Assembly (NCBI GenBank): GCA_029204225.1
Contig: MU832207.1
Location: 1 to 64,000 of the forward strand
Direction: 5' to 3'
DNA length: 64,000 nt
Source: Diphasiastrum complanatum
Lineage: Eukaryota > Streptophyta > Lycopodiopsida > Lycopodiales > Lycopodiaceae
Part shown: positions 18,145 through 58,058 of the stretch, one piece after another
Layout of the letters: every line of letters starts with the position of its first letter
How positions within the stretch are numbered: the first letter of the stretch is position 1
The notes under the pieces: model-generated
What the model was told of the DNA's origin: nothing
Database searches by the model: none
What the model saw: the letters and a program-made list of their open reading frames with translations, nothing else
Translations under genes and position numbers: made by a program

Positions 18145-20650
18145 AGTTATGTTCCTACCAATTTGTGTCCAGATTTTAAGTCCGTAACTCATCTTCTCAA
18201 ATTTGTATGTGAACGAAATAGTGGATTACTTGGATATTGTCAAAGGTTGAGTGAGATTGAAATGCATAGCATATCTTGTCTTAATCAGCAATTCCAGTTT
18301 GCTAATCAACAATTGCAACGTGCAAATCAGCAATTGCTTCATTATGTCCAACACACTAGTGCTGAAAACAATGCACTCAAGAATGCTATGTCATAGTTGA
18401 ATGCTACAGTCACTACTCTTTGGGGATTAAACCAAGAAATGTTAGAATCCATGGAAAAGTTGCGATCCGCGAGTTTAAAATCTGTTGTTGATATAAAAGT
18501 TATCAAAAAAGCAATGATGGAGAGGAAAAGAAAGAGAGTACCGATGAAGAATATTGATGACTTATCTACACATAGCGGCAAATAAAAAAAAAAGAATTCG
18601 AGTATTCAAGTATGTTTTCATATAAACTATTTATTTGATTTGTATATGTCATTTAAGTTTGATTTGCACTTGATAACATGGATTATTTATTTATTAAACA
18701 TAATTTGAGTTTCATATGTTTGTTGCAGATCATGTTTGGTGACAAAGAACTATTTAACAAATCGTTCATGCATTGGATCATCTTTAAGTCATGTTTTACC
18801 AAGAAAGTCAGCAAAGGAAATGATGAAAAATGCTTGGTTTGAAAAAATAAAAAATGAAATTGCAGAGACTATTTTGATTAAAATTCAATCATACTTGGAT
18901 GCAAATGTGATTGTGGATGCATGTGATGTTTTCGGAATTAGCAAAAATGTTTATTTTACTTTTTTTAAAATAGTTAAAGAAGTTTTTTCTCAAGTGATGG
19001 TGAAGAGAAGTTATCTTCCACGTCCATATCGGCTAAGATTCGCAAAAAATTATTATAATGACGGAATGTTCAAAGTAGTTGGCCAACCACTTCATATAAC
19101 TGAATTATACAAATCAGAATATGGTGAGCTCAATTACAACGATTGCAATAATATTTTTCTTGATATTAAAAACGTTCTAAAATACATTATTCGATTTTAT
19201 AAACTAGACGAACATCAAGTAAATGGAAAGATCATTATTGTAATAAAATTGGATGAAACTGAAATTATCAAGGGTCAGAAGTTGGAACGTGTGAGTGTCA
19301 CTTTGATGAACAAAATTTTCGAAATAGATGATCAAATGTTTAGTGTTCAATCGGAAAATCACATATGGTGGTTGGCGGCATTCCAGGTATACATTTCAAT
19401 TTTTATTTAAAGTATCGTTATTAACATTTTATACCTTGCTATTTTTTATTGACATGTCATGCATTACTTGCTTCTCTACAGGTCTTGAAAGATGACCACA
19501 AAATACTTTTATGGATATTTTCAAGAACAAATTATGGCGAGATTATAAAGAGACATTTGGAGGGTGAGAAATTTACAGTAAAAAACCATGGAAGTTTTCA
19601 AATTCAATGGCATCTTGCAGGGGATTTGAAAACATTAAAATGTATGTATAATGTCTCTCATGGGGCAACATCAGAGCATCCATGTTTTTATTGCATGAAG
19701 GATTGCTACAATATGAATTTGGGACGATCAAACACTGGCCCAACATGCGAAGCTGAAGATCCAAATATGAAAAGAGTTCTATCAATTTCATTAAAAAATG
19801 TTCACATATGCACTTTGCATGTTGAGGTTCATATTATTGAGAAACTTATTTACTTCTATATTTTCCTAGTGTGGAATCATAAACTGGATTTTGTGGCTAA
19901 AGTAGCAATTAGGAGGTTGAAAATAGTTTTGTCAAATGCAGGACTACATAAAGGGAATGCCACGATTGAAAAAAGTGACAGACTCTCCGAAAAAAAAGAA
20001 ACGTTCCTAATAGGCCATCAATTGAAGGTTCTAAAACAAGAAGATTCTTATCCAATCACACATGCAAAGAATCAAGTGTCAAATACAAAATTTGGAGAGA
20101 AATTGTTCAAGCCACACGAACACTGGAAGAAAGTAATTGAGTGGAAAAGGGACAAGTGTGGACCAACTTAGACAAACTCATAGGTGTAATCAGGAAAGAA
20201 AACCTATCATCAGAAGATATGAGGACTTCGCAAAATCATTGCACCACATTTCTAAAATCTGTACATGATTGTTGGGAAAAAGACAACATTACACATTACA
20301 TGGTGTTAATCTATGTCATTATCTGGTGCTTATCTCATTCAGGCTTATATTTTTTTCTATTGATGTAACTAATCAAAAATCTTGTTTGCAGCACATCCTT
20401 CTTCATCATGCAACTTATTTTGCAAAGGGATATGGGAGCTTAAGTATCTAGTCATCACAAGGCATGGAAAAATCTCATTGGCAAGCAAGAGGAGTATTTC
20501 ATAGAGCTACAAATCATGGAGGACACAATTCAAGAAATAAATATTTAGTTCAACTTTTTCAGTGGTTTTATAGAAGAGGACAATTTAGATATCAAGCAAA
20601 AAACTCACCAAATGTTATGATTTTTTGAAAGGCATTCAAATTCATAACAA
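18145..20650 (+). pseudogene. DNA-transposon transposase-like gene, copy C
   Basis: Three exons are seen. Exon 1 (18145-18583) starts inside CPDFKSVTHLLKFVCERN and encodes Q/N-rich and coiled-coil heptads (QQLQRANQQLLHYVQHTSAE). An intron ends at a tgcag acceptor before 18729. Exon 2 (to 19386) begins MFGDKELFN and includes LPRPYRLRFAKNYYNDG, KIIIVIKLDETEIIKGQ and ENHIWWLAAFQ. A gtatac donor and ctacag acceptor bound the intron 19387-19481. Exon 3 holds WHLAGDLKTLKCMYN, HPCFYCMKDC, NVHICTLHVEVHIIEKLI and, after frameshifts, GMEKSHWQARGVFHRATNHG. This order (acidic KxDE, GDxKxL, HPCxxC, CTLH...EKL, G.EK) resembles transposase-like proteins of repetitive elements in cnidarians and fish; the superfamily name is uncertain. 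The 5' end is cut by the copia junction. Confidence 0.65.
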
Positions 20651-20696
20651 AAGAGAGATCCTTGTAATATATCAAAAATCTATTACAGAAAATTGT

Positions 20697-22390: not shown

Positions 22391-22394
22391 ACTA

Positions 22395-24330: not shown

Positions 24331-24939
24331 ATGGCAATTCATGTTCAATCCAGACCTACAACATTGGAAAGCCCTGCAAAGAGTTCTAAAGTACATTCAA
24401 GCCTCAAAACACTATGCCTTGAGTTACAACAGTAACACAGAGGCTACACTCACACTGACTACCTATTCTGATTCAGATTGGGTAGGAGACATGGATACTA
24501 GAAAATCCACATCAGATTATATTTGTTTCCTTGCAGGAGGACCCATTTCATGGAACAACAGAAAGTAGAAATGCATTTTGTTGTCCTCTATGGAATCTAA
24601 ATACGTTGCAGCTACATCAACAGTGAACGAGACCATTTGATTGAGGAGGCTACTGTAGGATCTGCAATTCCCACAATTCAGTCCAACAATACTCCAGTGT
24701 GACAATCAAAGCTGGATAGCTCTATCTCTGAACCCACGTACTCATGCTAGAACTAAACACATAGAAGTTCAGTTCCATTTTCTTAGAGAGAAAGTTCAGA
24801 ACCTAGATGTTGTACTAAGTTACTGTCATACAGATAGTATGTTGGTTGATATTTTGACAAAGCCATTGTCTAGAGATAAACATTCTACCTTAGTAGAAAT
24901 GATAAATATTAATTGTAGATTAGATTCATACCAGTTAGC
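24331..24939 (+). pseudogene. copia RNase H
   Basis: YSDSDWVGDMDTRKSTSDYI (catalytic D), a stop after WNNRK, then LLSSMESKYVAATSTVNET (the usual E is now K), LQCDNQSWIALSLNPRTHAR and KHIEVQFHFLREKVQ follow. The domain ends at MLVDILTKPLSRDKHS and is full length but carries stops at 24567 and 24640. A polypurine tract follows directly. Confidence 0.85.
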
Positions 24940-24950
24940 TTAAGGAGGAG
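24940..24950 (+). promoter_or_regulatory. polypurine tract
   Basis: TTAAGGAGGAG immediately precedes the LTR start TGTTGGAATTTA. It would prime plus-strand DNA synthesis. Confidence 0.8.
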
Positions 24951-26191: not shown

Positions 26192-26198
26192 ACCGAAG

Positions 26199-26210
26199 TG
26201 GTATCAGAGT
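26199..26210 (+). promoter_or_regulatory. primer-binding site
   Basis: TGGTATCAGAGT matches the initiator Met tRNA primer site at 11 of 12 bases, 7 bp after the LTR end. A second similar string (tggtattagagc) occurs near 26244. Confidence 0.7.
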
Positions 26211-26367
26211 TGATAAATTAACAATCCATCCGATCCCACAGATTGGTATTAGAGCCCACACTCTCATTATTTATAAAATATACGAGAATATTGAGTAGAG
26301 TTAATTAATTAACAAGAGATGCATATGGATGAAAATCAGAAAGGATTATAGAACGAGGGAGAGTTTT

Positions 26368-26840
26368 CTAATAATCTGAAGTCATAGATACTTCAGCTTC
26401 AACCCCTATATCAGTATATGCATCATCTACATCAATTGGTGCAGATGCAAATACTTCAATCATTAGAACAATAGAAGATTCAACAGACTCATCATCTGGA
26501 ATTTCAGCAGATATGTAAAAGACAAAAGCCATTATTTTGATTAGAAGACGACATATTCTTTTGTGGATACCACAATATATATATATTTTGAAATGATCAT
26601 GCAGGTTAGAGTACTTTCTATTGTATTTATGCTTAGAGGATGGTTGGGAATGCACAAGGTCCTAAGACTCTCTATATTAAGAAGAGAAAGTAAATTATAA
26701 CAGTTCTCATAAACTAGCTTATCGATATCAAAGGATGCCAAAAAAATATTGAAAAAATACTCTAATTTCTCAGATGGAATATTACTGGCATTCAAAAAAT
26801 CTAGAAGTTTGTTATCTGAGGACATGGAGGAACTAGCCAT
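26368..26840 (-). CDS. putative two-exon gene with SAM-like domain
   Basis: From the Met near 26828-26840 the minus strand reads MASSSMSSDNKLLDFLNASN, then IPSEKLEYFFNIFLASFDID, then LLSLLNIESLRTLCIPNHPL. The spacing of hydrophobic residues (FL...I....Y...F....DI..L......L..L.I..L..L.I) resembles a SAM domain. This is my inference from pattern, not a firm match. A gtactc donor near 26598 and a 'ccag' acceptor near 26502 would join a second exon, DDESVESSIVLMIEVFASAP, ending acidic at VEAEVSMTSDY. No pol motif is present. It lies 1.7 kb upstream of the histone-like gene, divergent from it, and may belong to transposon copy A. Confidence 0.35.
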
Positions 26841-26849
26841 ATTGAATCT

Positions 26850-28501
26850 GATATCGGTTCAACACAACTAAATGATTTCGGTTGAGAACTGAACAACAGT
26901 GCGCATATTGATCTGATATCGTTTTCATGAGACTAAAATTTTTCAGATGAGCACACATCAAAAGAGACTGATATTGCTTCAGCGTGTCTGAATGAATCCG
27001 ACCGTGCACTGTAGGTGAAGGCGCACGTCGATTCAATATCATGAGCGAGAAAGAAAACAAAATGATGGAGTTCAGAATAAAAGATCACGAAATCAAAATA
27101 TGGAGAGTGGTGTCCATATTTATATCCTATTCTTGTTGATCACATCCATACATTTGTCCAACAGTGAATTGAGGACGCCTATATTTATCTACCAATTAGA
27201 GTGAGACAAATTTGTACCTCCATCGGAATACATTAAATAGTCTATCACTAGATTCTCTGAATCATCATTAGCACTGACCCTAAAATTTGTACCTATGCTG
27301 GAATGCATTAAATAATCTATCACTAAATTTTCTTTTGAGATAATTATTTATCCAGATATATTTTCATAAGACGGAGCATTTTGAAAGAGCCAATATCGAT
27401 TTCATGTGAGAGGAGAAGTGCTTCACCAGAATAGATCAAATAGACGTGCGTTGATGCAATATTTCAGTATGACGAATTGGATATCAGATTAGCGCCGTCA
27501 CAAAAAAAAAAACAAATTAACTTGGACTTCGGACGGTGATTTGATATTGGAATGCATTGTGAATCATCAAAACTTGTTTCGGGAGATTCCTCATACATCC
27601 AAAGCTAAAAAAAAATTGCCAAAGCAAACTTTGATGGTTCATAATGCATTCCAATATATTTTAACTGCATCTCAAATATCGGATCAGCACACCTGGGAGA
27701 AGAAATGGATTTTTTACTTGGACTGCGTGTGTCGAATCGCTATTGCAAGAAAAAAAGATTTTTGAAAATTGTCAAAATTATTGGATTGCATTTTGAATGA
27801 TCAAAGCTTATTTCAAAAGATTCTTCATACAGTCGAAAGCTAAATAGAATCTATCGAGGCAGCTTTGATCATTCATAGTGCCCTCCAAAATCGGTTCAGC
27901 GCACGAAAATAGCCTCTTTGGTTTACACATGCAATATATGCCCGTCGATTTGCTATTGGATGAAATAATGGCCATTGTAATTTTTGAAATTATGATGATT
28001 GGATATAAAAAAAGGTTAGATATTTATAACATAACCTTTTCAATTTCAAAAATTAATTGTAGATGTGACAATATTTCTCCATATTTACATTACCATGCAT
28101 TTCCATCATTACGATCGTCATTAGCCATATCGACTAATTATTTTGATGACCAATGGATATTTAATTGGATTTGATTGACAAGTCTTTGAATATCTCGAAG
28201 TAATGATCACTGTAATTCGAGCCTCGGAATTCCAACCACCACGTATGCAATCATTTTGAATATATACTATATATACAGATGGACGATGCTTAAATTTTTT
28301 TTGCTTAAAGTTCCTATCGTTCTCTACTTCCATGCAGTATCAATTTAGCGTGTCCAAAGTAACCTACTTGCTTTTCAGTTTTACTCACGCGTGCCCATCC
28401 GCTCTCAAATATCGGTTTGGTTTCGATTCATGTATCTGTTCTACGTGCTTGACCTAAATTCTGATCATGTGTTCTCCTTGCTCGCGTGCTGATCCGATAT
28501 T
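26850..28501. repeat. cluster of dispersed ~18-nt motif (copy A, upstream side)
   Basis: Variants of GCGCGTTGATCCGATATT or its complement occur at 26850-26867, 26899-26920, 26970-26988, 27021-27040, 27391-27410, 27444-27463, 27480-27497, 27675-27692, 27887-27905 and 28483-28501. Orientation is mixed. No coding region is convincing in this 1.6 kb. Repeated binding sites of this kind are typical near ends of DNA transposons; the binding role is inference. Confidence 0.6.
27547..27893. repeat. two related foldback units
   Basis: Unit 1 (27547-27657) has arms 'ggaatgcattgtgaatcatc' and the complement of 'gatggttcataatgcattcc' around a ~50-nt loop. Unit 2 (about 27784-27893) has arms 'gcattttgaatgatcaaagc' and the complement of 'gctttgatcattcatagtgc'. 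The arms of the two units resemble each other. Both lie in the motif-rich zone upstream of the histone-like gene. Confidence 0.6.
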
Positions 28502-28509
28502 GAATAGTA

Positions 28510-30562
28510 ATGACATAGACTAAGCAAACAACACGAATCCATCCTGGTGAAATCCTAATCACAAGAGGAGGTCAGGAAAATTCTCCACCATCGTCCCATC
28601 CACCACCACCTCTTCCTAGGCCAAGGGGCAAACAAAAAGACCCTCCTTGACTGAAGGATATTCAAAAGCTATAGAAGACCAATAATCTTCTGATTCTGAA
28701 AGCTCAAATACAGAGATCCATTAGACAGGTTACAAGAAGTCTATTTGCAGATGTGAGATTGACTGTAATGGAAATTGAGACGTTGTGCACACTGCATATG
28801 AGGATTTCCAAGTGAAACTTTTTTCAAATAGTGTTGTTGCAGTTGTCCGTGCCAAGAGGGTGACCATCATGCCCAAGGATTTCAACGTTGTGTTCAGGCT
28901 ACGAGACACATATGACAAAGTTGCTGAGTACTTCAGACCAGTTCCATTCTCTCCTCCAAAACAAGATTCAGAGAAAAAAAATCGAAAGCAATCTCAACCA
29001 TCTGGACTTGTTTTTTGAGTACAAAGTGGGAGTGTTTCAAAAAAGAGGAGGTCTCATGAACCTCTTAATAAAACACGAGATCTCAATCCCCATCTTCTCC
29101 GCCTAAATCTTCCTCTCCTGATAAATCTCCTCCTCCATCAAAATCTCAGTCTCCTCCTACCCTTACAAATATTAGTTCCCCCCTCCAGTTTTAGGAAAAG
29201 ATTTAGATGATTTTGTAAATTTAAAAAGCAAATCAATTTTAAATGACAATTCTTTGAGTAGCTTGTCTGTATTACTTCCTTCACACCCTGCACTTGCTTT
29301 TGTAAATACTCCTAAATATGTATAGTATGACCAATTGTTAAACACATATCTTAAAGTTCTAGGTCCTCTATATAGTTTTAAGATACCAAAGACCAATGTT
29401 GGGCTTTTCCTTTCTAAAATAGATACAGGTGAATTGAAAAATAGGAATAAAATTCTAGGCAACAATGTAAAAGGGGGGGCAATTCAGTACTAGATGGAGT
29501 TTTTTCGGACCCGACTGTTTATAGATGTAGCATTGTTTTCGCTTCAATTCATGGCTGCTTTTGATTTTCCTGATTTTAAAAGTCTGCACAATGATATGTT
29601 CGAATACGTTAGACTAGGGACTCCAATTCTTGTGCTCCCATACATAACAAAGTAAGTGTATTTTTATCATATTTTATTAAGTTGAATTTTTTATATGAAT
29701 TTTGATTTCACATTCATTCTCATAAATTTATTGTTTTCTGATTGTAGTGATCATTGGAGCTTATATGTGTTGTTCTTATATGTCAATGATGAGGGTGTGT
29801 GTAATCCAGTTTGTTTAAAGATGAACTCTATTACACACACACACAAAATTGCCAGGAGCCATATCCAGAAAATACTGGAACTCTTTCTAGTACCACATGC
29901 AATCGCATGTACGAAGCTGAAAATGGTTGATGCTGAGGTAAAAATGTATCAATATCGATTCAACGTGCCCTTGTAGTTATTGCTTGGTTTCTTTTCATAT
30001 CGTGCGCGTTGATCCGATATTCAAACAATATTTTCTGGATATCGGTTTGACGCACATTTGTTTTTGTTGTAGATTTTATTATAACCTCTTGTGTGTTGAT
30101 TCGATATTACATAATGTTAAAATTTTGTCACTAACTTTTGTTTATATTTGAATACTGCAGTCCTCCCAGCAAGTTGATTTTGTCAGCTGTGGTTGGTATA
30201 CGGTATGCAATGCCAAATTCTTTTTCAATTGGCTTGCACTACAAGATGAACTTCCTAATATGAAGAGGTAATCTATACCTGATAATTTCTAATAACTAAT
30301 ATTCGATTAATAACATTTAATTGTATTTTTGTTTTCTTTTTATAATCACATTCCTAGTAACTAATCTTTGATTAATAACATTTAACTATGTTTTTGTTTT
30401 TTTCAGTTTAAATGCCCAAAAGTCTCTCCAATGGAGATAATGCACTTCAGACAGAAGACCATAAACCTTGTGATCGAAAATTCATATCCAGTTGCAGTGG
30501 TAGCATGTTCTTCACCCAAGCTACTTCCAATTGGAGAAATGGATGTAGAGATCATAGATTAG
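28510..30562 (+). pseudogene. histone H3-like / Ulp1-like protease fusion gene, copy A
   Basis: The start ATG (28510) is placed by alignment with copy B: M-T-stop-T-K-Q-T mirrors the H3 tail. A proline-rich stretch follows, then LKDIQKL-stop-KTNNLLI (H3 aN), IQRSIRQVTRSLFADVRLTV (a1/L1/a2) and, after a frameshift near 28775, VRAKRVTIMPKDFNVVFRLR (L2/a3; H3 has HAKRVTIMPKDIQLARRIR). A Ser/Pro linker leads to LFIDVALFSLQF, a clean GTAAGT donor (29652) and an exon DHWSLYVLFLYVNDEG...CLKMNSI (29748-29937). The next exon, 30161-30267, is SQQVDFVSCGWYTVCN, and the last is 30407-30562. His, Gln and Cys match the C48/Ulp1 catalytic layout; the usual Asp is Asn. Stops and frameshifts make it a pseudogene. 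It would be nuclear and chromatin-directed, by inference. Confidence 0.7.
29938..30160 (+). repeat. motif-bearing intron of the fusion gene
   Basis: This GT...AG intron holds four copies of the ~18-nt motif (29951-29970, 30002-30021, 30038-30056, 30091-30108). Copy B has three in the corresponding place (40781-40887), so the array sits inside the gene in both copies. A further copy lies at 30932-30949. Confidence 0.6.
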
Positions 30563-30964
30563 CATGAGTCACAACTTGAGGAATAATTCTCAAGTTCAAA
30601 CTAATAAAAAGTTGGTCTCCCTTGATGTGGATGAGGCACATGTACAGAAATTTTTAATAGAAATATATTTACACTTTTCTATGGTTGTTCTTACATGTTT
30701 GTTTTCCTGTTATTAATCCAGATTATTATTGATTCAACTTCAATTACTATGGTGTTCCTACATGTTTGTTTTTCATAGCCTTGGTCTGCCTTGTCTTTAT
30801 CATGGTTTTTTTGGATAAGTTTAGAAGGTGATCTCAGTGAACCTTTGCCACAACCAATCAAACATGCGACATATGTTCACACAAATTTGTTATGGTAAAG
30901 CTTCACTGAGATAATCTTCTGAACAAGGGCAAGTGTCAATTCGATATTTGATTGTAGTGGTCAC

Positions 30965-31110
30965 TGGAGTTCAAGTGCCCGAAGATCTCTCCAATGGAGA
31001 TAATGCATTTCCTGTAGGAGACAATGAATCTTGTTATCAAAAACTCATATTATCTAGTTGTAATTACATTGTGTTCTGCACCATGGAAATGGAGATCATA
31101 GAAATGAAAA
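30965..31110 (+). pseudogene. duplicated last-exon fragment of the fusion gene
   Basis: FKCPKISPMEIMHFL at about 30973 repeats FKCPKVSPMEIMHFR of the last exon at 30407, and is followed by NLVIKNSY against NLVIENSY. It starts with 'gtagtggtcactggag', resembling the start of the DHWSLY exon, so pieces of two exons are joined. It is a scrambled remnant, not a gene. Confidence 0.6.
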
Positions 31111-31425
31111 AGCCTCATAGAAAAAGTGGTTCATATATTTTCAAAAATGATGTATACAAAAAATTGTATTTTTTAATACAAAATTCCATTGTTCATAATC
31201 TATGGATCTTCAATTTCGATGGATGTTCCAATGTCTTTGCATTTAATATGCTCTTCTTGCCTTACTCTTACCTGCACAAGAGAAGTTGTTTTAGTTAATA
31301 TATTTTTTGAAACGGATTCAATTAGAATAAGAAAAGAAGGAATATTTTCATATGACATAACGTATCTTTACACCATTCAATCAAAATTGATAGTATTGAG
31401 GTAGATCGAATTACAACATGTCTGA

Positions 31426-31926
31426 TCAAATGTGATTGAGACACCAATCTTTCTCAACCTCAACCATTGCAAGAATGTTGTCATTTATTTTCATTGTTAT
31501 TTGAAGTTGCTCTTGAGGGTTTATTCCAAAATCTTGATCAAGTGGTTTCCAAACATTTTTGCATTTAATCCAACTTCTATAATACAGCAGCAAAGTGAGC
31601 ATTTGTTTTTCGATGTGATATCTAAATGTCCTTGATGAGTAACATACTCTGCACTCAACTTGTTGATTTTGTTTCATATCCCAACTAGCATCCAACAACT
31701 CGGCGATTATTTCAGCACTCAAGTCCTTACAAATAAACATTGTTTTCATTCTCCGAACATTGCATTTGGAAAAAAAATCAACAAAAATAGTAAAACGTAG
31801 ATACCAACTTAATCTATTATTCTTTGATCCAGCGTTACATTTTAATATACTCTGAATATCAATATATCGTATAGATTGAAAACTTTCTAAAATTGCTGCA
31901 TCAGGAGAAATCCATTCCTCACTCAA
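31426..31926 (-). CDS. unrecognised open frame, 166 aa
   Basis: The frame starts MSEEWISPDAAILESFQSIR and is open upstream as LQPYPLPDFL, so the Met may be internal. It contains six cysteines, including KCNAGSK, CNVRR, ECRVC and KCKN, without a clear zinc-finger spacing. It ends MVEVEKDWCLNHI. No domain is recognised and there are no pol motifs. It lies convergent with the fusion-gene remnant and could be another gene of transposon copy A or an unrelated fragment. The lack of stops over 166 codons in AT-rich DNA is the only support. Confidence 0.35.
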   Translation of the reverse strand: MSEEWISPDAAILESFQSIRYIDIQSILKCNAGSKNNRLSWYLRFTIFVDFFSKCNVRRMKTMFICKDLSAEIIAELLDASWDMKQNQQVECRVCYSSRTFRYHIEKQMLTLLLYYRSWIKCKNVWKPLDQDFGINPQEQLQITMKINDNILAMVEVEKDWCLNHI

Positions 31927-32029
31927 AAAATCTGGTAGAGGATATGGCTGTAATCTACTAACTAAACCAGTTTAATCAAGAAAATAGGTGTGATCATAAA
32001 ATATGTCAAAAATTATGAACTCTTGCAAC

Positions 32030-33687: not shown

Positions 33688-34460
<773 letters not shown>

Positions 34461-34472: not shown

Positions 34473-35049
34473 TTGTTATGAGAGGATCAAGCACATCTAT
34501 CAAGGATTTGGTGAAGATATCAATGCTAGAGCATACTAGATTGACTTCTAACCAAAAATTGAGTTTCTTGCATATGTAGATCGGATCTTTTGTAGATCAA
34601 AACTCATATTAGGTTATTGAACTTTATGAATTCCAATTTCACACCACACTTATTGGAAATAGCCAATTTTGGATGCATTAGAAAGTCTCACTTGAGGCTA
34701 CAAGATTCTATATCAAGTTTTAGGCAATTGCATGTAGAATTTGAAATATTCATTTTTTGGTGATTTTGTCAGAACCCTAAGTTTGATTGGATCTCTATTT
34801 TTTGAGGTTACTGAACGTTATTAGAGTGTGTTTCAATCTTAGGAAGTGGCAAGAGTCATTAGATTGAGGATAGATCATAGGTTGATCAAGATTTCTACAT
34901 TCTATGTGTTGTTTTGCTAGATATAAGTGCTAGAAGAGAATTGAGAGGTTCCATATCTTTGTGATTATTTTTGGAAAAATTTGTTGTATTTCAAACGAGT
35001 GATTTGTGCATTGGAATAAGTTGAAAGAGAAGGATCAGGCCATTTCAAC

Positions 35050-35836
35050 ATGTCTACATCAAGTGGATACATGTTGGAAGGCAATGCTGGGCTTTCATTG
35101 TGGAAAGTGAGGATGGAATCACTTCATGAGATAAATAATGTTTTGGATATTTTTATAGGTTTGGAGGAGAGGCCAGCAACACAACAAGAACAATTTAAAT
35201 GTGACAAGAGAGCTAAAAGAGCTCTACACATGATAAAGATGAATGTTACCAATGAACTTGTCGAGGAAATTGGTAAGTGTACTTCATCAAAGGATGTTTG
35301 GGATTAATTAAATAAGCTTTATGAATCCAAGTCTACTTCTAGAGTGTTGACTCTAAGAAGGCTTATCTTTCAAAGTTTGCAAAAGAATGAAGAGATTCCA
35401 AATATTTATGTTTTGAGAGTGAAGTCTTTGAATGATGAGTGAGCTTACATTGTGAGAGCATTAAGAAAGGAGAGCTTGTTCAAGTTATTCTTAATGGTTT
35501 GTTGGATGCTCATTCTAACATTGTACAAAGTCTTGCCATTCAAAGAACTTTGCCAAGTTTGATTGATCTTAAAGAGATCTTGATCAATGAAGGATATAGG
35601 CTTCAAGCAAGAGGTGGATCTTCATCAATATCTCAAGTTGGAGAGGAGGCTATGTTCATCAAGGGCAAAAGCAAAAGTAAGTGGCCTAAAGGGCAAGATC
35701 AGGGGGAGGCTTCTTCAAATGACAAAAGGAAAGATAGATCAAAGCTCAAGTGCTTCTATTGTGGCATCAAAGGACACTTTGCGAGTGCTACAAGAAGAAG
35801 AGAGATCAAGGAAACAAGCAAGGTATTCTTACTTAG
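35050..35836 (+). pseudogene. element B Gag
   Basis: MSTSSGYMLEGNAGLSLWKV is the start, 590 bp after the primer site. KRALHMIKMNVTNELVEEIG and CTSSKDVWD (stop) LNKLYESK follow the UBN2-type Gag pattern. After a frameshift near 35440 it continues KKGELVQVILNGLLDAHSNI and ends in one zinc knuckle, CFYCGIKGHFASATRRR. Here the last Cys of CCHC is changed to Thr. The MITE at 35837 separates this from the protease part. Confidence 0.85.
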
Positions 35837-36207
35837 TAGAGGAGTTCTAAATCCAAAAAAGACCCTTTGTAAAGATTCTTTTTATATTTTTTCTTAAGTT
35901 TTTCTTATACATGGACCAATCAAAACACTCAAATTCGAAATCTACGTAACGTAACTTTTTGAGTTCACATTTTGATTCCACTCTAAAAATGGCATAACTT
36001 TTTAGTGGTAAGTCCAAATTTAGCAAAGTTTGGTGCATTGAAAAGTGCTCAACAAGGCTTTCCAGTGATTTGTTAGATGACATACTTTTGAGATATGATT
36101 AAAAAGTTATGGCAAGTCAAAAGTATTAGTGCTATAATATTTTAATAATATAAAAGACATCTTGCACGAATTCTTAAAGGGTCTTTTTGGAGCTCAAAAC
36201 TCCCCTA
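35837..36207. mobile_element. MITE-like element with ~40-bp inverted ends
   Basis: The left end 'gagttctaaatccaaaaaag' followed by 'accctttgtaaagattc' is mirrored at 36168-36207, whose complement reads 'gagttttgagctccaaaaag' then 'accctttaagaattcg'. The right edge 'ccctaatg' is the same as in the transposon at 40137-45043. The ~370-bp interior has no coding potential. It sits between the zinc knuckle and the protease of element B and thus postdates it. A clear target duplication is not visible. Confidence 0.65.
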
Positions 36208-36925
36208 ATGCATGTTGAATATGGTTTGGATGTTCAAAATTCAAATGATGATTCTTTTGTGATGTCTTCATCTATGGTTGCTAATGATGGAGATTTAGAT
36301 CCATGATGGATTGATAGTGGAGCAAGTTCACACATGACTTTTCACAAAGAGTACTTCACTTCTTTGTTGACATATGAAGATGACAAGAAGGTGATCTACA
36401 CGGCCAATGATGGTGAGTGTGCAATCAAAGGGATTGACACAATTCCTATTTCTCTCTCTACAAATAGGAATGTTCATTTGAAGGATGTTTTGTTCATACC
36501 TTCCATTATCAAGAATTTAGTTAGTGTGACTCGATTGCTAAGTAAAGGTTTCAAAGTTGAGTTTGATGGAGATGCTTGCATGATCAAAAGGATGGATATC
36601 TTGATTGCAAAAGGTAAAATAAAAGGAAAATTGTTCAAAATAGATGCTTGTATTATTTCTAACCAAATTGGATTTGTGAAGTGAGCAAATACCTATTCAA
36701 GAGATTTGGCATAAAAGGATGGGGCACTTCAACTTCAAGTCACTGGAGGTAATGGCTAAAAAGCAAGTTGTAATTGATTTTCCAAAATCCTTAAGTAGCA
36801 TCAATCATGTTTGTGAATCTTGTGTTTTGTCAAAGTCACATAGACTTCCTTATGCTAGATCTACAAAGCCTTTTCAAGTTGTACATTTGGATATTCATGG
36901 AATTACTACAACTAGCAATGGAGGT
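36208..36925 (+). pseudogene. element B protease and gag_pre-integrase
   Basis: After the MITE the reading VQNSNDDSFVMSSSMVANDG leads to a stop and WIDSGASSHMTFHKEYF, the retropepsin active site. LKDVLFIPSIIKNLVSVTRL is the usual linker. After a frameshift near 36680, IWHKRMGHFNFKSLEVMAKK and CESCVLSKSHRLPYARSTKP form the zinc domain. It ends in FQVVHLDIHGITTTSNGG, the first integrase strand, where a minus-strand copia remnant replaces the rest of integrase. Confidence 0.85.
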
Positions 36926-38312
36926 GTGTTTACGATTCATGAATCGTTCGTGCTTTGAGTCAAAGACACGTTGACTGTCACAAATTGTTCTCGTTTGACC
37001 TTTGTGTCTTGTTCATGCTACGACAAAGTTGTAGAAGTTCACCATTTCTGATATCCCCTCTTGAACCTTGCAGCTTTGTTCATTCAATCCAATTGCCTCA
37101 CTTTGCTTGATAAAGAGTGGCTTGTCAAGCGATTTCGTGAGGAGATCTGCAATCATACTTTCTGATTTTATGAACTGGACCTAGAGCTCTCCTTTCAAGA
37201 TCAAATCTCGAATGTGATGGTACTTCAAAGGAATGTGCTTCATCTTTGAATGGAAGACAGGATCATGGGACAGATAGATGGCACTCTGAGAGTCCATCAT
37301 CATCGTGCTTGGTCCGTATCCCGATTGCCTCATTCGCCACTTTTGAGACTGCAACATACTCAACTTCGCAAGAAGATTGAGCTACCAGGGTTTGCTTTTT
37401 GCATATCCAGCTGATTGCAGTTTCACACGCTATTGTACATCCACCAGTAATGAACTTGTTGTCATCTTTGTAGCTTGCCCAGTTCGCATCACTGTAGTGA
37501 TGTAGCTTGAATCCTTTCTCTTCGTTTCTAGATCTATAGGTTAATCCAATATTCTAGGTACCCTTCAGATACTGTAGGATTTGTTTGGCCATTTGCCAAT
37601 GTGCTAGACCAGGATTGGAACATAATTGGCTCAATGAGTAAAAAGAGAAGGCCAGATCCGGTCTGGTACATCAAAATCTCGATTAAGTTCTAGTAGGATA
37701 TACCTGTCATCTTCTATCCTTCCTCTTCTGTTTTTGGGCAATCCTGTTTCGTGAGCTTGGCTCCAACTATCATTGAAATCATCCACAAAAATGGTCAGTA
37801 TCAAAAAATTCTTTCCTACTCTTTTGATGTAGACATTATAGTCTGGTTGAGTAGGGTTGAAGTCTAGAGACTTCAGAAGACCATCAAAATTTTTGTACCA
37901 GGCCCATGATGTAGACATTACAGTCTGATTGAGTAGAGTTGAAGTCTAGAGACTTCAAAAGTCCATCAATCTTTCTTCCTCTAGATCTCCGTGGAGAAAG
38001 GCTATTTTCACGTCAATTTTTGGTGAATTTTCAGATTGTTGGACAAAACGATGATCGCCATTGCATGCTCATCCTTTCTGATCCATTCAGCTTTCCTCAG
38101 ATCTCCCTCTGGAGGCTGCACCTCTGAGAGCTCATTCACCGACCAGATGTCTTCGCCCTTCAAGAGTGTTTTGATTTGGAATTTCTAGATTCTGTAATTT
38201 GCACCATCAGGACTAATTGCTACTCTAGTCTAGATTGTTGTAGCCATATTGTGTTGTCTGGAGGAATCACTGCTGGGATATCAATAGTGATAACCTGTAC
38301 GCTCTAATACTA
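36926..38312 (-). pseudogene. inserted minus-strand copia remnant (RT and RNase H)
   Basis: Minus-strand blocks: RT pieces near 37918 (YKNFDGLLKSLDFNPTQPDY) with FVDD in place of YVDD, a further piece near 37600, and RNase H pieces. These include MDSQSAIYLSHDPVFHSKMK (37190-37290) and AVSWRS-type remains upstream. A polypurine-like 'gttcaagagggga' near 37053 precedes a ~120-bp LTR stump. Part of the RT linker is duplicated: 'gtctggttgagtagggttgaagtctagagacttc' occurs near 37840 and again near 37920. A primer site in reverse (TAGTATTAGAGC, 38301-38312) abuts the LTR. Gag, protease and integrase are absent. Confidence 0.7.
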
Positions 38313-40129: not shown

Positions 40130-40136
40130 TGTAAAA

Positions 40137-40177
40137 CATTAGGGGATATTAGAACTCAAAATGGGCCCTTTGTCAAG
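40137..40177 (+). repeat. left terminal inverted repeat of copy B
   Basis: Pairs with 45003-45043 over roughly 40 bp, best in CATTAGGG and CAAAATGGGCCCTTT. Confidence 0.8.
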
Positions 40178-40585: not shown

Positions 40586-40795
40586 ATGGCTACACATAAT
40601 TGGAGACCAAGAGGAACCATTGATGCAATCAATATTTGCAATGAAAAAAATGCAGAAGATCAATGGATACCAAGAATATATCAAAAATATCAATGGATCT
40701 TGATGCATCCCTCTGCAAAAGGCTCATTCCGAAAAAAAAAAAGATCGAATAACATATATAGAAGCTCAACAAAAAACAAGCGCGCATCGAATTGA
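40586..40795 (+). CDS. short open frame downstream of a GC-richer, promoter-like region
   Basis: MATHNWRPRGTIDAINICNE starts a 69-codon frame running to KNKRASN. It lies on the opposite strand to the two main genes. The preceding 400 bp are richer in G and C and have a clean CT-rich leader, unlike the surroundings, which suggests a real 5' end. No family is recognised. It is probably the truncated first exon of a third transposon gene. The missing protease exons of copy B should lie in this area, so a deletion joined the two. Confidence 0.35.
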   Translation: MATHNWRPRGTIDAINICNEKNAEDQWIPRIYQKYQWILMHPSAKGSFRKKKRSNNIYRSSTKNKRASN

Positions 40796-40899: not shown

Positions 40900-42343
40900 C
40901 TCTGCATCAACCATTTTCAGCATCGAGTATGCTTTTGCATTTGGTATTGAAAAGAGTTCCAGTATTTTTTGTATATGGGTCCTGGCAATTTTGTGTGTGT
41001 GTGTAATAGAGTTCATCTTCAAACAAACTAGATTACACACACTCTCATCATTGACATACAGGGACAACACATATAAGCTCCAATGATCATTGAAATCAGA
41101 AAACAAGAAATTTATGATCAATGTGAAATCAAAATAATAAAATAAAATCTGAAAAATAGACACTTACTTTGTTATGTATGGCAGCATGAGAATTGGAGTC
41201 CCCAGTCTGACGTATTGGAGCATATCATTGTGCAAACTTTTGAAATCAGGGAAATCAAATGTTGCCATGAATTGAAGGGGAAACAATGCAACATCTATAA
41301 ATAGTGAGGTTTGGAAGAAATCCATCCAATCTCCTACATTGTCCCCTAGCATTTTATCCCTACTTTCTAGTTCACCAGTATCTAAACTAAAAAGGGGGAG
41401 ACCAGCATTGGTCTTCGACATCCTAAAACTGTATCGAGGACTAAACCTTTAGGATACATGTTTAACAATTGGTCATACTGTACATAGTGCAGGGGGTAAC
41501 AGAAATAACACTGATAAACCACATAAAGAATTGTCATTTAAGATTGATTCTACCTTTACACTAATAAAATCATCTAAATCGCTTCCAACAATAGGAGGAG
41601 AGGAACTAATATTTATGGGTTTAGGAGGAGGAGGAGATTTAGGAGGTGGAGATTGGTTAGGAGAGGAAGATTTAGCAGAAAAAGTTAAAGATGGAGTGGA
41701 AGGAGAAGAAGGAGACTTAGGAGGAGAATGCCTAGAAGAAAGAATTATATTCAAAGGATATGGCTTGGAAAAATCCCTTGCTTTAGATGGAGGGTCTAGA
41801 GACCTCCTCTTCTTTGAAACACTCCCGATCTGTATATGAACAAGAAGCTGGGTTGGTTGAGATTGCTTTCGTTTTCTCCTCTCTGAATCTTGTTTTGGAG
41901 GAGAGGAGGGAGCAGGTCTAAAGTATTCAGCAAACTTGTCATATGTGTCCCGAAGCCTGAACACGATGTTGAGATCTTTGGGCATGATGGTCACTCTCTT
42001 GGCATGGACAGCTGCAACAACAGTATCAGAAAAAAATTTTCACCTGAAAATTCTCATATGTTGTGTGCAGTGCCTCAATTGCCATTACCGTCCATCTCAC
42101 ATTTGTAGATAGACTTTTTGTCACCTGCCTGATGGACCTCCGTATGTGAGATTTCGAAATCAAAAAATTATTTGTCTTCTAAAGCTTCTGAATATCCTTG
42201 ATCCAGGGTGGGTCTCTTCTTCTGTCCCTTGGCCTAGGAGGTGGTGGTGGTGGACGAGGTGGTGGTTGTGGATTTTTCTGACCCGCACTTGAAATTGGTA
42301 TTCCACCTGAATGCCCTTGTGCTGTTTGCTTGGTCCACGCCAT
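40900..42343 (-). pseudogene. histone H3-like / Ulp1-like protease fusion gene, copy B
   Basis: The Met at 42343 opens MAWTKQTAQGHSGG, against ARTKQTARKSTGG in H3. A poly-Pro stretch then PPWIKDIQKL-stop-KTNNFLI corresponds to the H3 aN helix. IRRSIRQVTKSLSTNVRWTV and MAIEALHTTYENFQVKIF are a1-L1-a2. After a one-base shift near 42030, VHAKRVTIMPKDLNIVFRLR gives L2-a3. A 120-residue Lys/Ser/Pro linker (SPPKSPSSPSTPS) follows. Then come NVGDWMDFFQTSLFIDVALF, a gtaagt donor (41167) and DHWSLYVLSLYVNDES...CLKMNSI (41086-40900). The acceptor AG before DHW is mutated (CAA), and the exons with the catalytic Cys are missing. The H3 part is the better preserved of the two copies. The protease assignment rests on copy A. 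Confidence 0.75.
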
Positions 42344-42481: not shown

Positions 42482-44885
42482 TCAATTATTACCTTCCAAT
42501 GTTCGTGTGGCTTGAACGATTTCTCTCCAACTTTCGTATCTGACAATTGATTCTTTACATGTGTGATTGGATAAAAATCTTCTTGTTTTAGCACCTCCAA
42601 TTGATGGCTTATTAGGAACACTTTCTTTTTTCCCTAAGAGTCTGTCACTTTTTTCAATCGTGGCATTCCCTTTATGTAGTCCTGTATTTGACAAAACTAT
42701 TTCCAACCTCCTAATTGCTACTTTAGCCACAAATTCCAGTTTATGATTCCACACTAGGAGAATATGCAAGTAAATAAGTTTCTCAATAATATGAACCTCA
42801 ACATGCAAAGTGCATATGTGAACATATTTTAATGGAATTGGCAGAACACTTTTCATATTTGGATTTTCAGTTTCTCATGTTGGGCCAGTGTTTGTTGATC
42901 GTCCCAAATTCATACTGTAGCAATCCCTCATGTAATAAAGACATGGATGCTTTGATGTTCCCCCATGAGAGACATTATACATACATTTTAAAGTTTTCAA
43001 ATCTCCTACAAGGTGCCATTGAATTTGAAAACTTCCATGGTTTTCAACTGTGAATTTCTCACCCTCCAAATGTCTCTTTATAATCTCGCCATAGTTTGTT
43101 CTTGAAAATATCCATGATAGTATTTTATGGTCCTCTTTCAAGACCTCTAGAGAAACAAGAATGCATCACATGTCAATAAAAACTGGCAAGGTATGAATTA
43201 TTAATATAGATATTCTAAATGAAAATTGAAATGTATACCTGGAATGCCGCCAACCACCATATGTGATTTTCCGATTGAACACTAAACATTTGATCATCTG
43301 TTTCGAAAATTTTGTTCATCAAAGTGACACTCACACGTTCTAACTCCTGACCCTTGATGATTTCAGATTCATCCAATTTTATTACAATAATGATCTTTCC
43401 ATTTACTTGATGTTCGTCTAGTTTATAGAATTGAATAATGTATTTTAAAACATTTTCAATATCAAGGAAAATATTATTGCAATCGTTGTAATTAAACTCA
43501 CTATATTCTGATTTGTATAATTCAGTTATATGAAGTAGTTGGCCAACTACTTTTAACATTCCGTCATTATAAAAATTTCTAGCTAATCTTACCCGATATG
43601 GACGTGGAAGATTAATTTTCTTCACCATCACTTCAGAAAAAGCTTCTTTGACTATTCTAAAAAAAGTAGAATAAGCATTTCTGCTAATTTCAGATACATC
43701 ACATGCACCTTGTATCACATTTGTATCCAAGTACAATTGAATCTTAATCAAGACAGTCTCTACAGTTTCATTTTTTATTTTTTCAAACCGAGCACTTTTT
43801 ATCATTTCCTTTGTTGACTTTCTTGGTAAAACATGACTTAAAGATAATCCAATGCATGACGATCTGTTAAATAGTTCTTTGCCACCAAACATGATCTGCA
43901 AGAAACATATAAAACTCAAATTATGTTCAATAAATAAATAATCCATGTTACAAGTGTAAATCAAACTTAAATGACATATACAAATCAAATAAACTATTTA
44001 GATGACAACATGCTTGAATGCTCGGATTTTTTTTTTTTATTGCCGCTATGTGTAGATAGGTCATCAATATTCTTCATCAGTACTTTGTTTCTTTTCCTCT
44101 TCATCATTGTCTTATTGATAAATTTTAGATCAACAGCAGATTTCAAACTCTCGGATCGCAACTTTTCCATGGATTCTAACATTTCTTGGTTTGATCCTCG
44201 AAGAGTAGTGACAGTAGCATTCAACTCTGACATAGCATTCTTGAGTGCATTATTTTCAGCACTAGTGTGTTGCACATAATGAAGCAATTATTGATTTGCA
44301 CATTGCAATTGTTGATTAGCAAACTGTAATTGTTGATTTAGACAAGATATGCTATGCACTCCAATATCTTGCAACCTTTGACAATATTCAAGTAATCCGC
44401 TATTTCCTTCACATACATATCTGAGAAGATGAGTTAAGGACTTAAAATCTGGACAGAAATTGGTAGCTGGATCATTAGGATAAATTGATCCATCCACCCA
44501 CAAATCTATATTCATATGATTATTCATTCTCAATTCTCTAACTATTGCTGCAGCATTCTCTACAGCTTTCGTATTTTTCTTGATAATTGGAGTGCATTCC
44601 ATAGAAAAAGCAACATGCAAATGGAACATTGCCATTGTTAAAACTACAATCATGTAAATGAATCTACCTACAGTAAATCAATATGAATAGATCTAGCATT
44701 CCTTACTTTTGTAATGTTTTTGTCGCATTGAAGAATCGTCTCACCTCGTATTTCACTATAAGCATACAGTGATTTCAAAAGTTTTGCCTCTCCCGCTTCA
44801 GTTTTTGCATTGAGCACACCAAGATATTCAGTCTTAAAGCTCTAGTCCCGAATTTGGGAACGAGCATGAAGAGAAGTTATTACAT
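42482..44885 (-). pseudogene. transposase-like gene, copy B
   Basis: Candidate first exon 44885-44715 (VITSLHARSQIRD, LLKSLYAYSEIRGETILQ). The Met at 44635 (MAMFHLHVAFSMECTPI) matches the start in copy D. The exon continues with NFCPDFKSLTHLLRYVCEGN, Q-rich repeats and coiled coil (one TAA near 44290), KRKRNK (basic), to 43994. The next exon, 43891-43241, has NLPRPYRVRLARNFYNDGML, KIIIVIKLDESEIIKG and ENHIWWLAAFQ. The third, 43144-42482, has WHLVGDLKTLKCMYN, HPCLYYMRDC and YVHICTLHVEVHIIEKLI. Putative catalytic acids are D in KLDE and D in GDLK. The first Cys pair is kept as C-Y in this copy (HPCLYY). The C-terminal part seen in copy C is missing. It would bind the element ends in the nucleus. 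Confidence 0.65.
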
Positions 44886-45002: not shown

Positions 45003-45043
45003 TTTCTTAAAGGGCCCATTTTGAGCCCATATTTTCCCTAATG
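45003..45043 (-). repeat. right terminal inverted repeat of copy B
   Basis: Contains AAAGGGCCCATTTTG and ends TTCCCTAATG. The same end occurs at 51480-51521 (copy D) and 36168-36210 (MITE). Confidence 0.8.
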
Positions 45044-45699
45044 GATTTCAACTAGTTTAGTCAAGATTGTTCATAGTTTGATAAATTGCCAAATACACAA
45101 TTGAGGCCAATTTTCATATTAGACTTAGAGTTTGACTTTTCAAAGTTATATTAGTCTAAAAGAAATTGAATAAACACTCTTGGAAAGTGTGGGAAACTAT
45201 AGAACACGAGTTTTTGGTAGATTCAATTTGAGTAGTAGAGACATTGAATATAGTCACAATAATAGTAGGGTTTTTCATTATGGAGGGAAACCAAAGTTGA
45301 AAGTTAGGTTTGCACTTGTTATAAAAGGAATTCACTCATGGGAAGAGAACAAATTCTCTCTCTCTCTTATCTCATTTCATGCCTATACATGGTTCTCTTT
45401 GGGTCATATATCCATTGGTGCACTATATTGGTGATATCTTGCAATCTTGTGTGTAGAATGTTTATTTTATGCTATTTTTGGATCCACACGTGTGAAATAA
45501 AATAGCTTACTATTTTTGTATGGACTGAAACTTCATCATATCTTATGGTTGATGTTTGATCATGTTCTTAATGAGTTTGCATCTCTTTCATTAAGTAGAT
45601 GTTGATTTTTTCACATTGGCAAGATTGGTAGAGGTGATCTATTTTTAACCAAAGATTAGGTTATGGATTTGGATCTCAATTGATCCCAAATTCTTCACA
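45044..45699 (+). repeat. 3' LTR of element B (main part)
   Basis: Continues the LTR begun at 40130-40136. It aligns with 33695-34460 throughout, ends ATTCTTCACA, and is followed by 'gaact', comparable to 'aagct' before 33688 if one base was lost. Coding sequence of the split host integrase resumes at once. Confidence 0.9.
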
Positions 45700-50499: not shown

Positions 50500-51521
50500 A
50501 ACAAGTTTTATTAAACAATTTGGAATCTAACTTGAATGATAATCATACTTGAATGCTTAAATTCTTTTCTTCTGATTGTCATTGTGTAAGGATAATTCAT
50601 CAATATTCGGTATCTTTTTTTTTTTTTTCTTTTCATTATTGTCTTTTTGGTATCTTCTACATCAGCAACAGATTTCAAACTTTCAAATCATAACTTCTTC
50701 AATGACTGTAACATGATCTGGTTTGAGCTTTGAAGACTAGTGATTAGAGTATCTAGTTTTGATATAGAGTCCTTGAGTGCAAAGTTTTCATTTCTAGTGT
50801 GTTGCACATAACGCTGCAATTGTTGACAAGCACATTGTTATTGCTGATTGGCATATGATAGTTGTGCATTATGCATGCCAAAATCTCACAACCTTTGACA
50901 ATATCCAAGTAATCCACTATGTCCTTCAAATACAAATATTGAAAGATGATTGATAGACTTAAAATTTGGACATTCATCGGGACTTGGATCTTCAAGATAA
51001 ATTGTTTCATCTATTCACAAATCCACATGCTTATGATTGTATAGTCTCAAATCTTTAATCAATGTAGAAACATTTTCTACAATTATTGAATTTTCTTTTG
51101 AAAATGAAATATATTCAATAGGAAGTGTAACATGCAAATGGAGCTTTTCCATTGTTGAAAACTATAATATGTCAAAAGATTGATCATCGTACTTGAGATT
51201 TGTACTGGCTATGTTGAGGACACAATTCTCCCTCCTCATAAAGATTTCAAAAGTGCTCATAGTGCCCTTGCTACATATTTTGCAATGAGCATACCAAGAT
51301 TTGAATATGGCAAAGCATGTAGAGAAATTTTGGCTTATGTTATTACAAAGCATGCTTAAGTTTATTGTCCAAAATAACCACACTAGTTAGAATGCGGGCA
51401 ATACTAAAAACTCAAAAAATCACAACCAAACGTTACCAGTTCGCATTTTCTCTCTACATAACCCCTCTCTAAAGTCAAATTTCTTCAAGGGCCCATTTCT
51501 TTTTCCATATTTTCTCTAATG
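50500..51521 (-). pseudogene. DNA-transposon fragment, copy D (transposase-like N-terminus and right end)
   Basis: The minus strand from 51152 reads MEKLHLHVTLPIEYISFSKE and HVDLWIDETIYLEDPSPDE. It continues CPNFKSINHLSIFVFEGHSG, LLGYCQRL (stop), LQRYVQHTRNENFALKDSIS and LQSSNQIMLQSLKKL, colinear with copy B at 44635-43994. The upstream exon trace (YSNLGMLIAKYVARAL) is also present. The right terminus at 51480-51521 (AAGGGCCCATTT...CTCTAATG) matches the TIR of copy B. The part encoding the catalytic core is missing, the break lying near 50500. Copies B and D are clearly different in sequence, so they are not recent duplicates. Confidence 0.65.
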
Positions 51522-57749: not shown

Positions 57750-58058
57750 AAGGGGAACATCTCTAGGTGTGAGATTGCTCTCCATTGTCACAGTTTGCAG
57801 TACCTATCCCTCATTCTAAACAAAAGATAAAAATATTTGGATGTTATGGTTACTTGCTTAGTATGAATAGAAAGCAAAAAAGAAAATCTCAAAGAATAGG
57901 ATCTATGAAGAGTTTGTCAATGCACCAAACAAGATATTACCCAAACCAGTCAAGAGCATACATTTGATGAAATAACCATTTGCTTTCTAATTGATTTAAA
58001 ATCATTTTCAACCTTTTAAGAACATCATCTATGTTCTCAACAGAGACTTCATACTCAA
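57750..58058 (+). other. target sequence of element J, weak coding trace
   Basis: The sequence interrupted by element J continues here from 52876. A 60-codon frame (VPIPHSKQKIKIFGCYGYLL) has a faint integrase C-terminal flavour (IFGCYG). The stretch otherwise shows nothing firm. Confidence 0.35.

What the first reader, a model, noticed from the sequence alone, without database searches (positions are those of the whole stretch)
40900..42343. Histone H3-like protein encoded inside a TIR DNA transposon
Directly seen: a start M-A-W-T-K-Q-T-A, an aN-like block (KDIQKL.KTNNFLI against H3 REIRRYQKSTELLI), a1/a2-like helices and (V)HAKRVTIMPKDLN, nearly the L2 of H3 (HAKRVTIMPKDIQ). This order and spacing over the whole histone are hard to explain by chance. 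The gene lies between inverted ends of a mobile element on the same strand as its transposase-like gene. H3 is an intensely conserved host protein; I know of no plant transposon family that carries one. A possible role (inference) is to mark or open chromatin at the element, or to interfere with host nucleosomes.
Basis: partly seen in the sequence, partly recalled or inferred. Interest (0 to 1): 0.93.

Follow-up and report, generated by a model that had tools for sequence, protein, structure and literature searches.

The report
Jumping genes carrying their own histone
This genome, probably a plant's, holds many copies of a mobile DNA element that carries its own altered version of histone H3, the DNA-packaging protein; the altered histone shows signs of having been kept by natural selection, and it may help the element avoid being silenced by its host.

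Summary
Window 42343-41164 (minus strand) encodes an H3-type histone-fold protein, broken here, inside a 4.9 kb element with terminal inverted repeats (TIRs). It is not a lone captured pseudogene. The genome holds several diverged families of related elements. Two complete ones (8.7 and 9.0 kb) carry the same four genes: a transposase-like gene, an unknown gene (X), the H3-like gene, and a gene with a possible BAH-like (H3-tail-reader) domain. 134 H3-like rows are listed in the genome; all 60 read have such a histone fold. Over six sequences of the A, A2, A3 and D subfamilies the fold evolved with omega 0.103. Private mutations look neutral (1.06-1.29) and shared ones constrained. All 23 tails read lack lysine 9, the plant silencing site, while 22 keep lysine 4. 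My best reading is an element-encoded H3 variant that resists K9-based silencing; that function is inferred, not shown. Fungal hAT transposons with captured H3 genes are the only precedent found. Host CenH3, copy number, expression and relatives in other species could not be tested; origin from H3 or CenH3 is unresolved.

The parts
40137..40171 (+). TIR of element W1, distal end
   Evidence: the repeat finder pair I1; 29 of 35 bases identical to the other TIR, 0 of 20,000 shuffles
45009..45043 (-). TIR of element W1, transposase-proximal end
43994..44602 (-). W1 transposase-like gene, N-terminal coiled-coil part (stop codon inside)
   Evidence: tblastn to family B and A transposase N-terminal parts, E 4.7e-19 and 5.4e-11
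42488..43862 (-). W1 transposase-like gene, core (KLDE, WHLAGDLKTLKCMY and related motifs); no match to the C-terminal exon
   Evidence: tblastn to family B, E 4.2e-61 and 2.3e-81; invariant columns of 3 sequences
41164..42343 (-). W1 H3-like gene: K4-type tail with G at position 9, proline-rich linker, histone fold, C-terminal region; broken by a TAG in aN, a frameshift in the fold and stops near 41450-41475
   Evidence: Pfam Histone E 4.1e-17 on the read-through; PDB H3 hits; end MLPYITK* at 41187-41164
41950..42205 (-). histone-fold part of the W1 H3-like gene
40586..40765 (+). W1 remnant of the BAH-like gene, first exon only (convergent with the H3-like gene)
   Evidence: tblastn to BAH_A1 E 5.3e-8 and BAH_B1 E 1.9e-8
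18154..20658 (+). W2 (second, larger element): transposase-like gene, 91% identical to W1 over 2.0 kb
26263..26661 (-). W2 gene X remnant
   Evidence: tblastn to X_B E 3.2e-7
28510..29652 (+). W2 H3-like gene (MT*TKQTTRI..., fold at 28651-29000; several stops and frame changes)
31372..32001 (-). W2 BAH-like gene, later exon
   Evidence: tblastn to BAH_B3 E 3.8e-50
50536..51521 (-). W3 fragment: one element end plus transposase N-terminal part
   Evidence: blastn of W1 8-61, 55-175 and 393-1049
57791..57883 (-). family-B-like H3 fragment (a2/L2/a3)
   Evidence: tblastn to H3_B, 74% over 31 aa, E 2.0e-9

Best explanation
SHOWN: a lineage of TIR DNA transposons in this genome carries four genes in the order transposase - X - H3-like - BAH-like, and its diverged H3-fold gene shows purifying selection. 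The window copy is a decayed, internally deleted member. INFERRED: while the element is expressed, the protein enters nucleosomes on or near element DNA (residues matching H3 R83, H113, R116 and D123 are kept in 11 of 11 aligned sequences). The element's possible BAH-like protein may bind this tail and bring in or protect the transposition machinery. On this reading it is an element-encoded anti-silencing histone. I put the identity and selection part at about 0.95 and the anti-silencing mechanism at about 0.4; the score below is for the mechanism.
Confidence: 0.42

Rival explanations
1. CenH3-like protein: the element's histone derives from, or mimics, centromeric H3 and steers the element or its copies to centromeric chromatin, or creates centromere-like chromatin.
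For: Three positions match recalled plant CENH3 rather than H3: P for R63 in 7 of 11 TE sequences, A for L65 in 9 of 11 (S in the other 2), T for Q85 in 10 of 11. Family B has one extra residue in loop 1, W1 a W in loop 1. CENH3 tails can also begin MARTK (recalled).
Against: In the tree H3, CENH3 and CENP-A form one side and all TE sequences the other, so the TE histones are not nested in CENH3; but that split has support of only 77. Over 16 diagnostic columns TE residues match CENH3 46 times, H3 51 times and neither 79 times. 119 placed copies pooled over chromosomes do not depart from uniform (KS p 0.12), but a pooled test cannot see centromeres that lie at different places, and local clusters exist. 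Host CenH3 was not found because the genome search did not complete.
Confidence: 0.17
2. Decoy: the protein acts off the element, titrating H3 chaperones, H3K4/K9 enzymes or H4, and so weakens host silencing in general.
For: Tail motif and fold are conserved while the rest differs greatly (about 320 aa before the fold in family A copy L009; a C-terminal region after it in B and W), which fits a protein that needs binding surfaces more than nucleosome geometry.
Against: A decoy needs no BAH-like gene in the same element and need not keep the H3-H3' interface residues. No binding data.
Confidence: 0.2
3. Integration or excision accessory: the histone is a structural part of the transposition complex (for example it wraps the ends) with no role in silencing.
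For: Present with the transposase in the complete elements examined; gene order shared by A, B and W2.
Against: Does not explain keeping K4 while changing K9.
Confidence: 0.13
4. Passive transduplication: a host H3 fragment was captured and amplified, as in fungal hAT elements, with no function.
For: Fungal precedent (PMC3538342, PMC6710886). Many copies, including all seen in the window, are broken; within-family omega is 0.52-0.85.
Against: Omega 0.103 across subfamilies; private changes neutral but shared changes constrained; synonymous-only change in the A-D tail motif; same four-gene set in diverged families.
Confidence: 0.06

Closest known systems
H3L of hAT transposons in Pyrenophora tritici-repentis (PMC3538342) and Pseudocercospora fijiensis (PMC6710886)
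   Same: H3-like gene between the TIRs of a DNA transposon, beside the transposase and (in Pyrenophora) another ORF; many copies; the Pyrenophora H3L also matches neither H3 nor CenH3 fully.
   Different: Fungi; hAT transposase; near-identical (Pyrenophora) or RIP-inactivated (Pseudocercospora) copies read as transduplication. Here no hAT domain was detected, there are several diverged families, a shared four-gene set and purifying selection.
VANDAL / VANC anti-silencing elements of Arabidopsis (PMC5735166, PMC10398659; seen only in a search listing)
   Same: A plant DNA transposon that encodes a non-transposase protein acting against its own epigenetic silencing (the function proposed here).
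   Different: VANCs are sequence-specific DNA-binding proteins, not histones; no MULE domain was hit in the parts scanned here.
Plant CENH3
   Same: Diverged H3 fold; shared P63, A65 and T85-type residues in most TE sequences; some tails start MARTK (recalled).
   Different: Not nested with CENH3 in the tree (split support 77); carried on mobile elements; in most families loop 1 is no longer than in H3.
KDZ transposons with TET/JBP genes in fungi (recalled, not looked up)
   Same: Chromatin- or DNA-mark gene carried by a DNA transposon.
   Different: An enzyme, not a histone; kinship of the transposases was not tested.

Membership tests
Histone H3 (PF00125, H3 type) | Histone-fold profile above the curated cut-off | tested here: met
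   63 bits for the window read-through; 95.2 and 97.8 bits for family B and A proteins; cut-off 26.4. Unjoined window pieces 25.5 and 20.2 bits, under the cut-off
Histone H3 (PF00125, H3 type) | H3 rather than H2A/H2B/H4/CENP-T type, with aN helix and L2 KRVTIMPKD | tested here: met
   The 60 PDB rows shown in each are named H3 (one row and 48 reads 'Histone domain-containing protein'); CENP-T/CENP-S hits stay under their cut-offs
Canonical or replacement H3 (H3.1/H3.3) | Near-invariant sequence with K9 | tested here: not met
   46-54% identity in the fold for 10 sequences, 36% for W1; K9 replaced in 23 of 23 tails read
CenH3 / CENP-A | Groups with CENH3 in a tree | tested here: inconclusive
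   H3+CENH3+CENP-A split from all TE rows with support 77; CENH3 rows were recalled and host CenH3 is missing
CenH3 / CENP-A | Centromere localisation | not testable with these tools
   needs ChIP or microscopy
TIR DNA transposon | Terminal inverted repeats bounding repeated copies | tested here: met
   35 nt at 100% (L016), 35 nt at 86% (L017), 38 nt at 95% (A26), 29 of 35 (W1); in family A five other copies share the left end and two the right end
TIR DNA transposon | Target-site duplication | tested here: inconclusive
   None adjoining the CATTAG/CTAATG ends in 4 elements with both ends; repeats of 3 and 4 bp three bases further out in 2 of 4, which chance could give
TIR DNA transposon | DDE/D transposase | tested here: inconclusive
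   Conserved acidic motifs in 3 sequences but no Pfam or PDB sequence match above cut-off; superfamily unknown
hAT transposon with H3L (fungi) | hAT transposase domain and 8 bp TSD | tested here: not met
   No hAT Pfam domain in the transposase parts scanned; no 8 bp repeat at offsets -4 to 4 in 4 elements
BAH domain (PF01426) | Profile hit | tested here: not met
   No BAH hit up to E 10 for 7 members
BAH domain (fold) | BAH fold | tested here: inconclusive

The most novel reading that the evidence does not exclude
A transposon lineage that builds its own chromatin: it encodes an H3 variant without K9 and, in the same element, a BAH-type reader for that H3 tail, so that element DNA is packaged in self-marked nucleosomes that host K9 silencing cannot write on. 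This would be a selfish histone-plus-reader pair maintained over deep time in a plant.
Probability: 0.25. Interest if true: 0.96.

Novelty: new variant of a known kind. Interest (0 to 1): 0.87.

Why it matters
H3 is among the most constrained proteins known. Here selection appears to have kept a strongly altered H3 on selfish DNA rather than on a host gene, with K4 retained and the main plant silencing site removed. If it works as inferred, it is a direct way to ask whether a parasite can escape silencing by changing the nucleosome itself, and it offers natural K9-less H3 variants for testing what the H3 tail does. It also warns annotators that histone-domain counts in such genomes can be mostly transposon-borne (134 of the 150 rows listed).

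Tried and rejected
Passive pseudogene: disfavoured by the selection pattern. Centromere role as the main reading: not favoured by the tree (support only 77) and not tested well by copy positions; not excluded. Protease beside the histone: no protease profile above its cut-off in the element ORFs scanned (Peptidase_S28 at 12.1 bits, cut-off 25, is noise). Intron as the cause of the window frame break: the obvious GT...AG stretch there is 32 bp, too short for a usual plant intron (recalled), and genes of families A, B and C are open across the fold in one frame. Identifying the transposase: no Pfam match above cut-off, no PDB match, no relative in viral contigs (56 pattern matches, none confirmed). 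AlphaFold of the family B H3-like protein without an alignment gave pLDDT 34 and was not used. X and H3-like genes are flipped between A and B while the order is the same, so a single block inversion does not explain it. Genome identity: 1.745 Gb with rows on contigs C1-C23 of over 40 Mb (C20 length not seen) suggested the clubmoss Diphasiastrum complanatum, from recall only; one search found no paper to check it, so it stays a guess, as does 'plant'. Literature: 10 searches over open-licence PMC papers; bear on the question and listed no plant transposon with a histone (17, 64 and 92 asked other things); subscription papers are not held. Papers: PMC3538342 passages and one section (part 1 of 2); PMC6710886 abstract, outline and one section; PMC11687628 passages; the rest only as search listings. 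Not done: total copy count, host CenH3, TIR census (genome search answered only) and relatives in other species (protein database off).

Full report
WHAT WAS CHECKED. The finding places an H3-like protein at window 40900-42343 inside a TIR transposon. Reading the minus strand from 42343 gives MAWTKQTAQGHSGG..., then a proline-rich stretch, KDIQKL*KTNNFLI, helices a1-a2, and FFSDTVVAAVHAKRVTIMPKDLN. A TAG and a frameshift break it. Read through, it scores 63 bits (E 4.1e-17; cut-off 26.4) against Pfam Histone; the two unjoined fold pieces score 25.5 and 20.2 bits, just under the cut-off, and the N-terminal piece alone has no Histone hit. Against the PDB the 60 shown of 186 matches are all named H3. 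This is not chance.

ELEMENT IN THE WINDOW. The longest inverted pair in 38-52 kb is 40130-40171 / 45009-45050. Trimmed to CATTAG...CTAATG it is 29 of 35 identical, reached by 0 of 20,000 shuffles (the shuffles do not correct for searching many positions). Between the ends, on the minus strand, lie a transposase-like gene (44602-42488) and the H3-like gene (42343-41164); the first exon of a third gene lies on the plus strand (40586-40765). I call this W1. A larger relative, W2, lies on the plus strand at about 18.15-32.0 kb: transposase-like 18154-20658 (91% identical DNA to W1 over 2.0 kb), gene X 26661-26263 (minus), H3-like 28510-29652, third gene 32001-31372 (minus). W2's TIRs were not found. 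W1 shows no match to the transposase C-terminal exon, gene X or most of the third gene, so it is internally deleted. Both copies are broken and share a TAG in aN.

THE LINEAGE IN THE GENOME. The window's assembly has 1.745 Gb in 5176 contigs. A Histone search lists 150 rows (153 matches; 6325 first-look candidates, of which 150 were scored). Thirteen score 163.7-165 bits; five of them were read and are host H3. Three at 82.8-84 bits are intron-containing H3 genes. The other 134 lie at 95.4-109.5 bits, in open frames of up to 417 aa, some with stops. I read 60 of the 134 (20 loci of 10 kb and 40 short ones): 60 of 60 have a diverged H3 fold. Of the 60, 29 match family A and 24 family B at 85% or more, one is C (L021), and six (subfamilies A2, A3, D) lie at 44-69% to A. 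Element surroundings were seen only in the long loci. The true copy number is unknown.

COMPLETE ELEMENTS. Family A: A26 (L026+L030), 8957 bp, TIR 38 nt at 95%; five other copies share its left end and two its right end to within a few bases. Family B: L016:990-9670, 8681 bp, TIR 35 nt at 100%, and L017, 9305 bp, TIR 86%. A26 and L016 both carry four genes in the order transposase - X - H3-like - third gene; X and H3-like each point the other way in A than in B, so this is not one block inversion. Protein identity A to B: transposase 25-28% in the N-terminal part and 41-58% in the core, H3-like 41% over 124 aa, third gene 32-34%, X 26% (E 7e-4, weak). Window W2 has the B order and orientation. 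So the gene set has travelled and diverged together. No target-site duplication adjoins the ends in the four elements with both ends. The transposase has invariant acidic motifs but no Pfam match above cut-off and no PDB match; its superfamily is open.

THE HISTONE. Family B protein (L017): Pfam Histone E 4.3e-27. Family A protein (L009, proline run shortened): 6.9e-28. Fold identity to host H3 is 46-54% for ten A, A2, A3, B, C and D sequences and 36% for W1. Residues matching R83, H113, R116 and D123 are kept in the 11 aligned TE sequences (numbering and roles recalled); W2, not in that alignment, has R at the H113 position. R63-K64-L65 is changed, mostly to P-R-A. In A the fold is C-terminal (about 320 aa lie before it in L009); in B and W it is followed by a linker and a C-terminal region that is related between B and W2 (E 4e-4) and marginally B and W1 (E 0.09) in two-sequence comparisons.

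THE TAIL. Tails read: A 13 of 13 long loci, B 5 of 6 (the start of L022 is broken), C 1, D 2, W 2; the A3 copy L077 has lost its tail. K4 is kept in 22 of these 23 (C has E). Position 9 is D (11) or G (2) in A, D in B, A in C, E or V in D, G or I in W: K9 is absent in 23 of 23. Residues 1-8 are exactly ARTKQTAR in 7 of 23 (six A, one D). Some tails were found by searching for KQT, which favours K4 but not the loss of K9. Between A and D (L075) residues 1-8 are identical while 5 of the 8 codons differ silently, although the folds are only about 45% identical. Family A has an in-frame ATG four codons upstream, so the start is not certain.

SELECTION. In 29 A and 24 B copies, changes private to one copy have a nonsynonymous/synonymous ratio, scaled to a neutral expectation, of 1.29 and 1.06; changes shared by two or more copies have 0.64 and 0.37. 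A codon model over all branches within families gives 0.847 (A) and 0.523 (B). Across six subfamily sequences (A, A2, two A3, two D) it gives 0.103; synonymous sites are saturated in 11 of 15 pairs, the D pair gives 0.215 and the A3 pair 0.514. This is the pattern of an active lineage under purifying selection that sheds neutral copies. Caution: copies were chosen by Histone score, and B, C and W were not in the deep set.

ORIGIN. In an unrooted tree of 18 sequences, H3, plant CENH3 and human CENP-A are split from all TE histones with support 77 only; the A/D side groups with them against B, C and W with 91. Some positions (P63, A65, T85) resemble CENH3. Of 16 diagnostic columns times 11 TE rows, 46 cells match CENH3, 51 match H3 and 79 match neither. 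Origin from H3 or CENH3, and whether by one capture, is unresolved; the shared gene set speaks for common ancestry of A and B. Of 121 copies on C1-C23, 119 with known contig length do not depart from uniform when pooled (KS p 0.12), a test that cannot see centromeres at different places; local clusters exist.

MECHANISM. Shown: element, gene set, H3 fold, selection, tail pattern. Inferred: translation, entry into nucleosomes, resistance to K9 methylation, reading by the BAH-like protein. Keeping K4 but not K9 is what I would expect of a histone that must look like an active H3 end and must not carry the silencing mark; a decoy or an accessory role in transposition remains possible.

COMPARISON. 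Fungal hAT elements with H3-like genes are the nearest precedent: in Pyrenophora 26 near-identical copies that match neither H3 nor CenH3 fully (PMC3538342, section read in part); in Pseudocercospora hundreds of RIP-inactivated copies (PMC6710886, abstract and one section). The present lineage differs in transposase, divergence, gene set and selection, and probably in being in a plant. VANDAL/VANC elements (PMC5735166, PMC10398659, listing only) show that plant DNA transposons can encode anti-silencing proteins. The searches of open papers listed no plant transposon with a histone.

Noticed in passing
window 18154-32001: A second, larger element of the same lineage (W2) with parts of all four genes, not mentioned in the finding; about 8 kb lies between its transposase and H3-like gene.
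   Followed up: partly
families A and B (L026+L030, L016): X and H3-like genes have opposite orientations in A and B although the gene order is the same.
   Followed up: partly
L021:6001-6369 and L021:9084-9329: One locus holds two different H3-like genes: a family C copy and, about 2.7 kb further, a diverged B-like copy.
   Followed up: no
transposase of families A, B, W (alignment A1): Transposase-like protein with conserved KLDE and WHLAGDLKTLKCMY-type motifs and no Pfam, PDB or viral-contig relative found; possibly an undescribed superfamily.
   Followed up: partly
window 42343-42330 and 28510-28520; L015, L020, L027: Codon 2 of the tail (CGG, Arg in family A) reads TGG or a stop in several copies, as would be expected of decaying methylated cytosines.
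   Followed up: no
window 35020-37945: Retrotransposon-like ORFs on both strands, recognised by eye only; a TIR-like sequence at 36176-36210.
   Followed up: no
window 33982-34263; family A 5' region: Long CT repeats (SLSLSL frames), also just upstream of the family A BAH-like gene.
   Followed up: no
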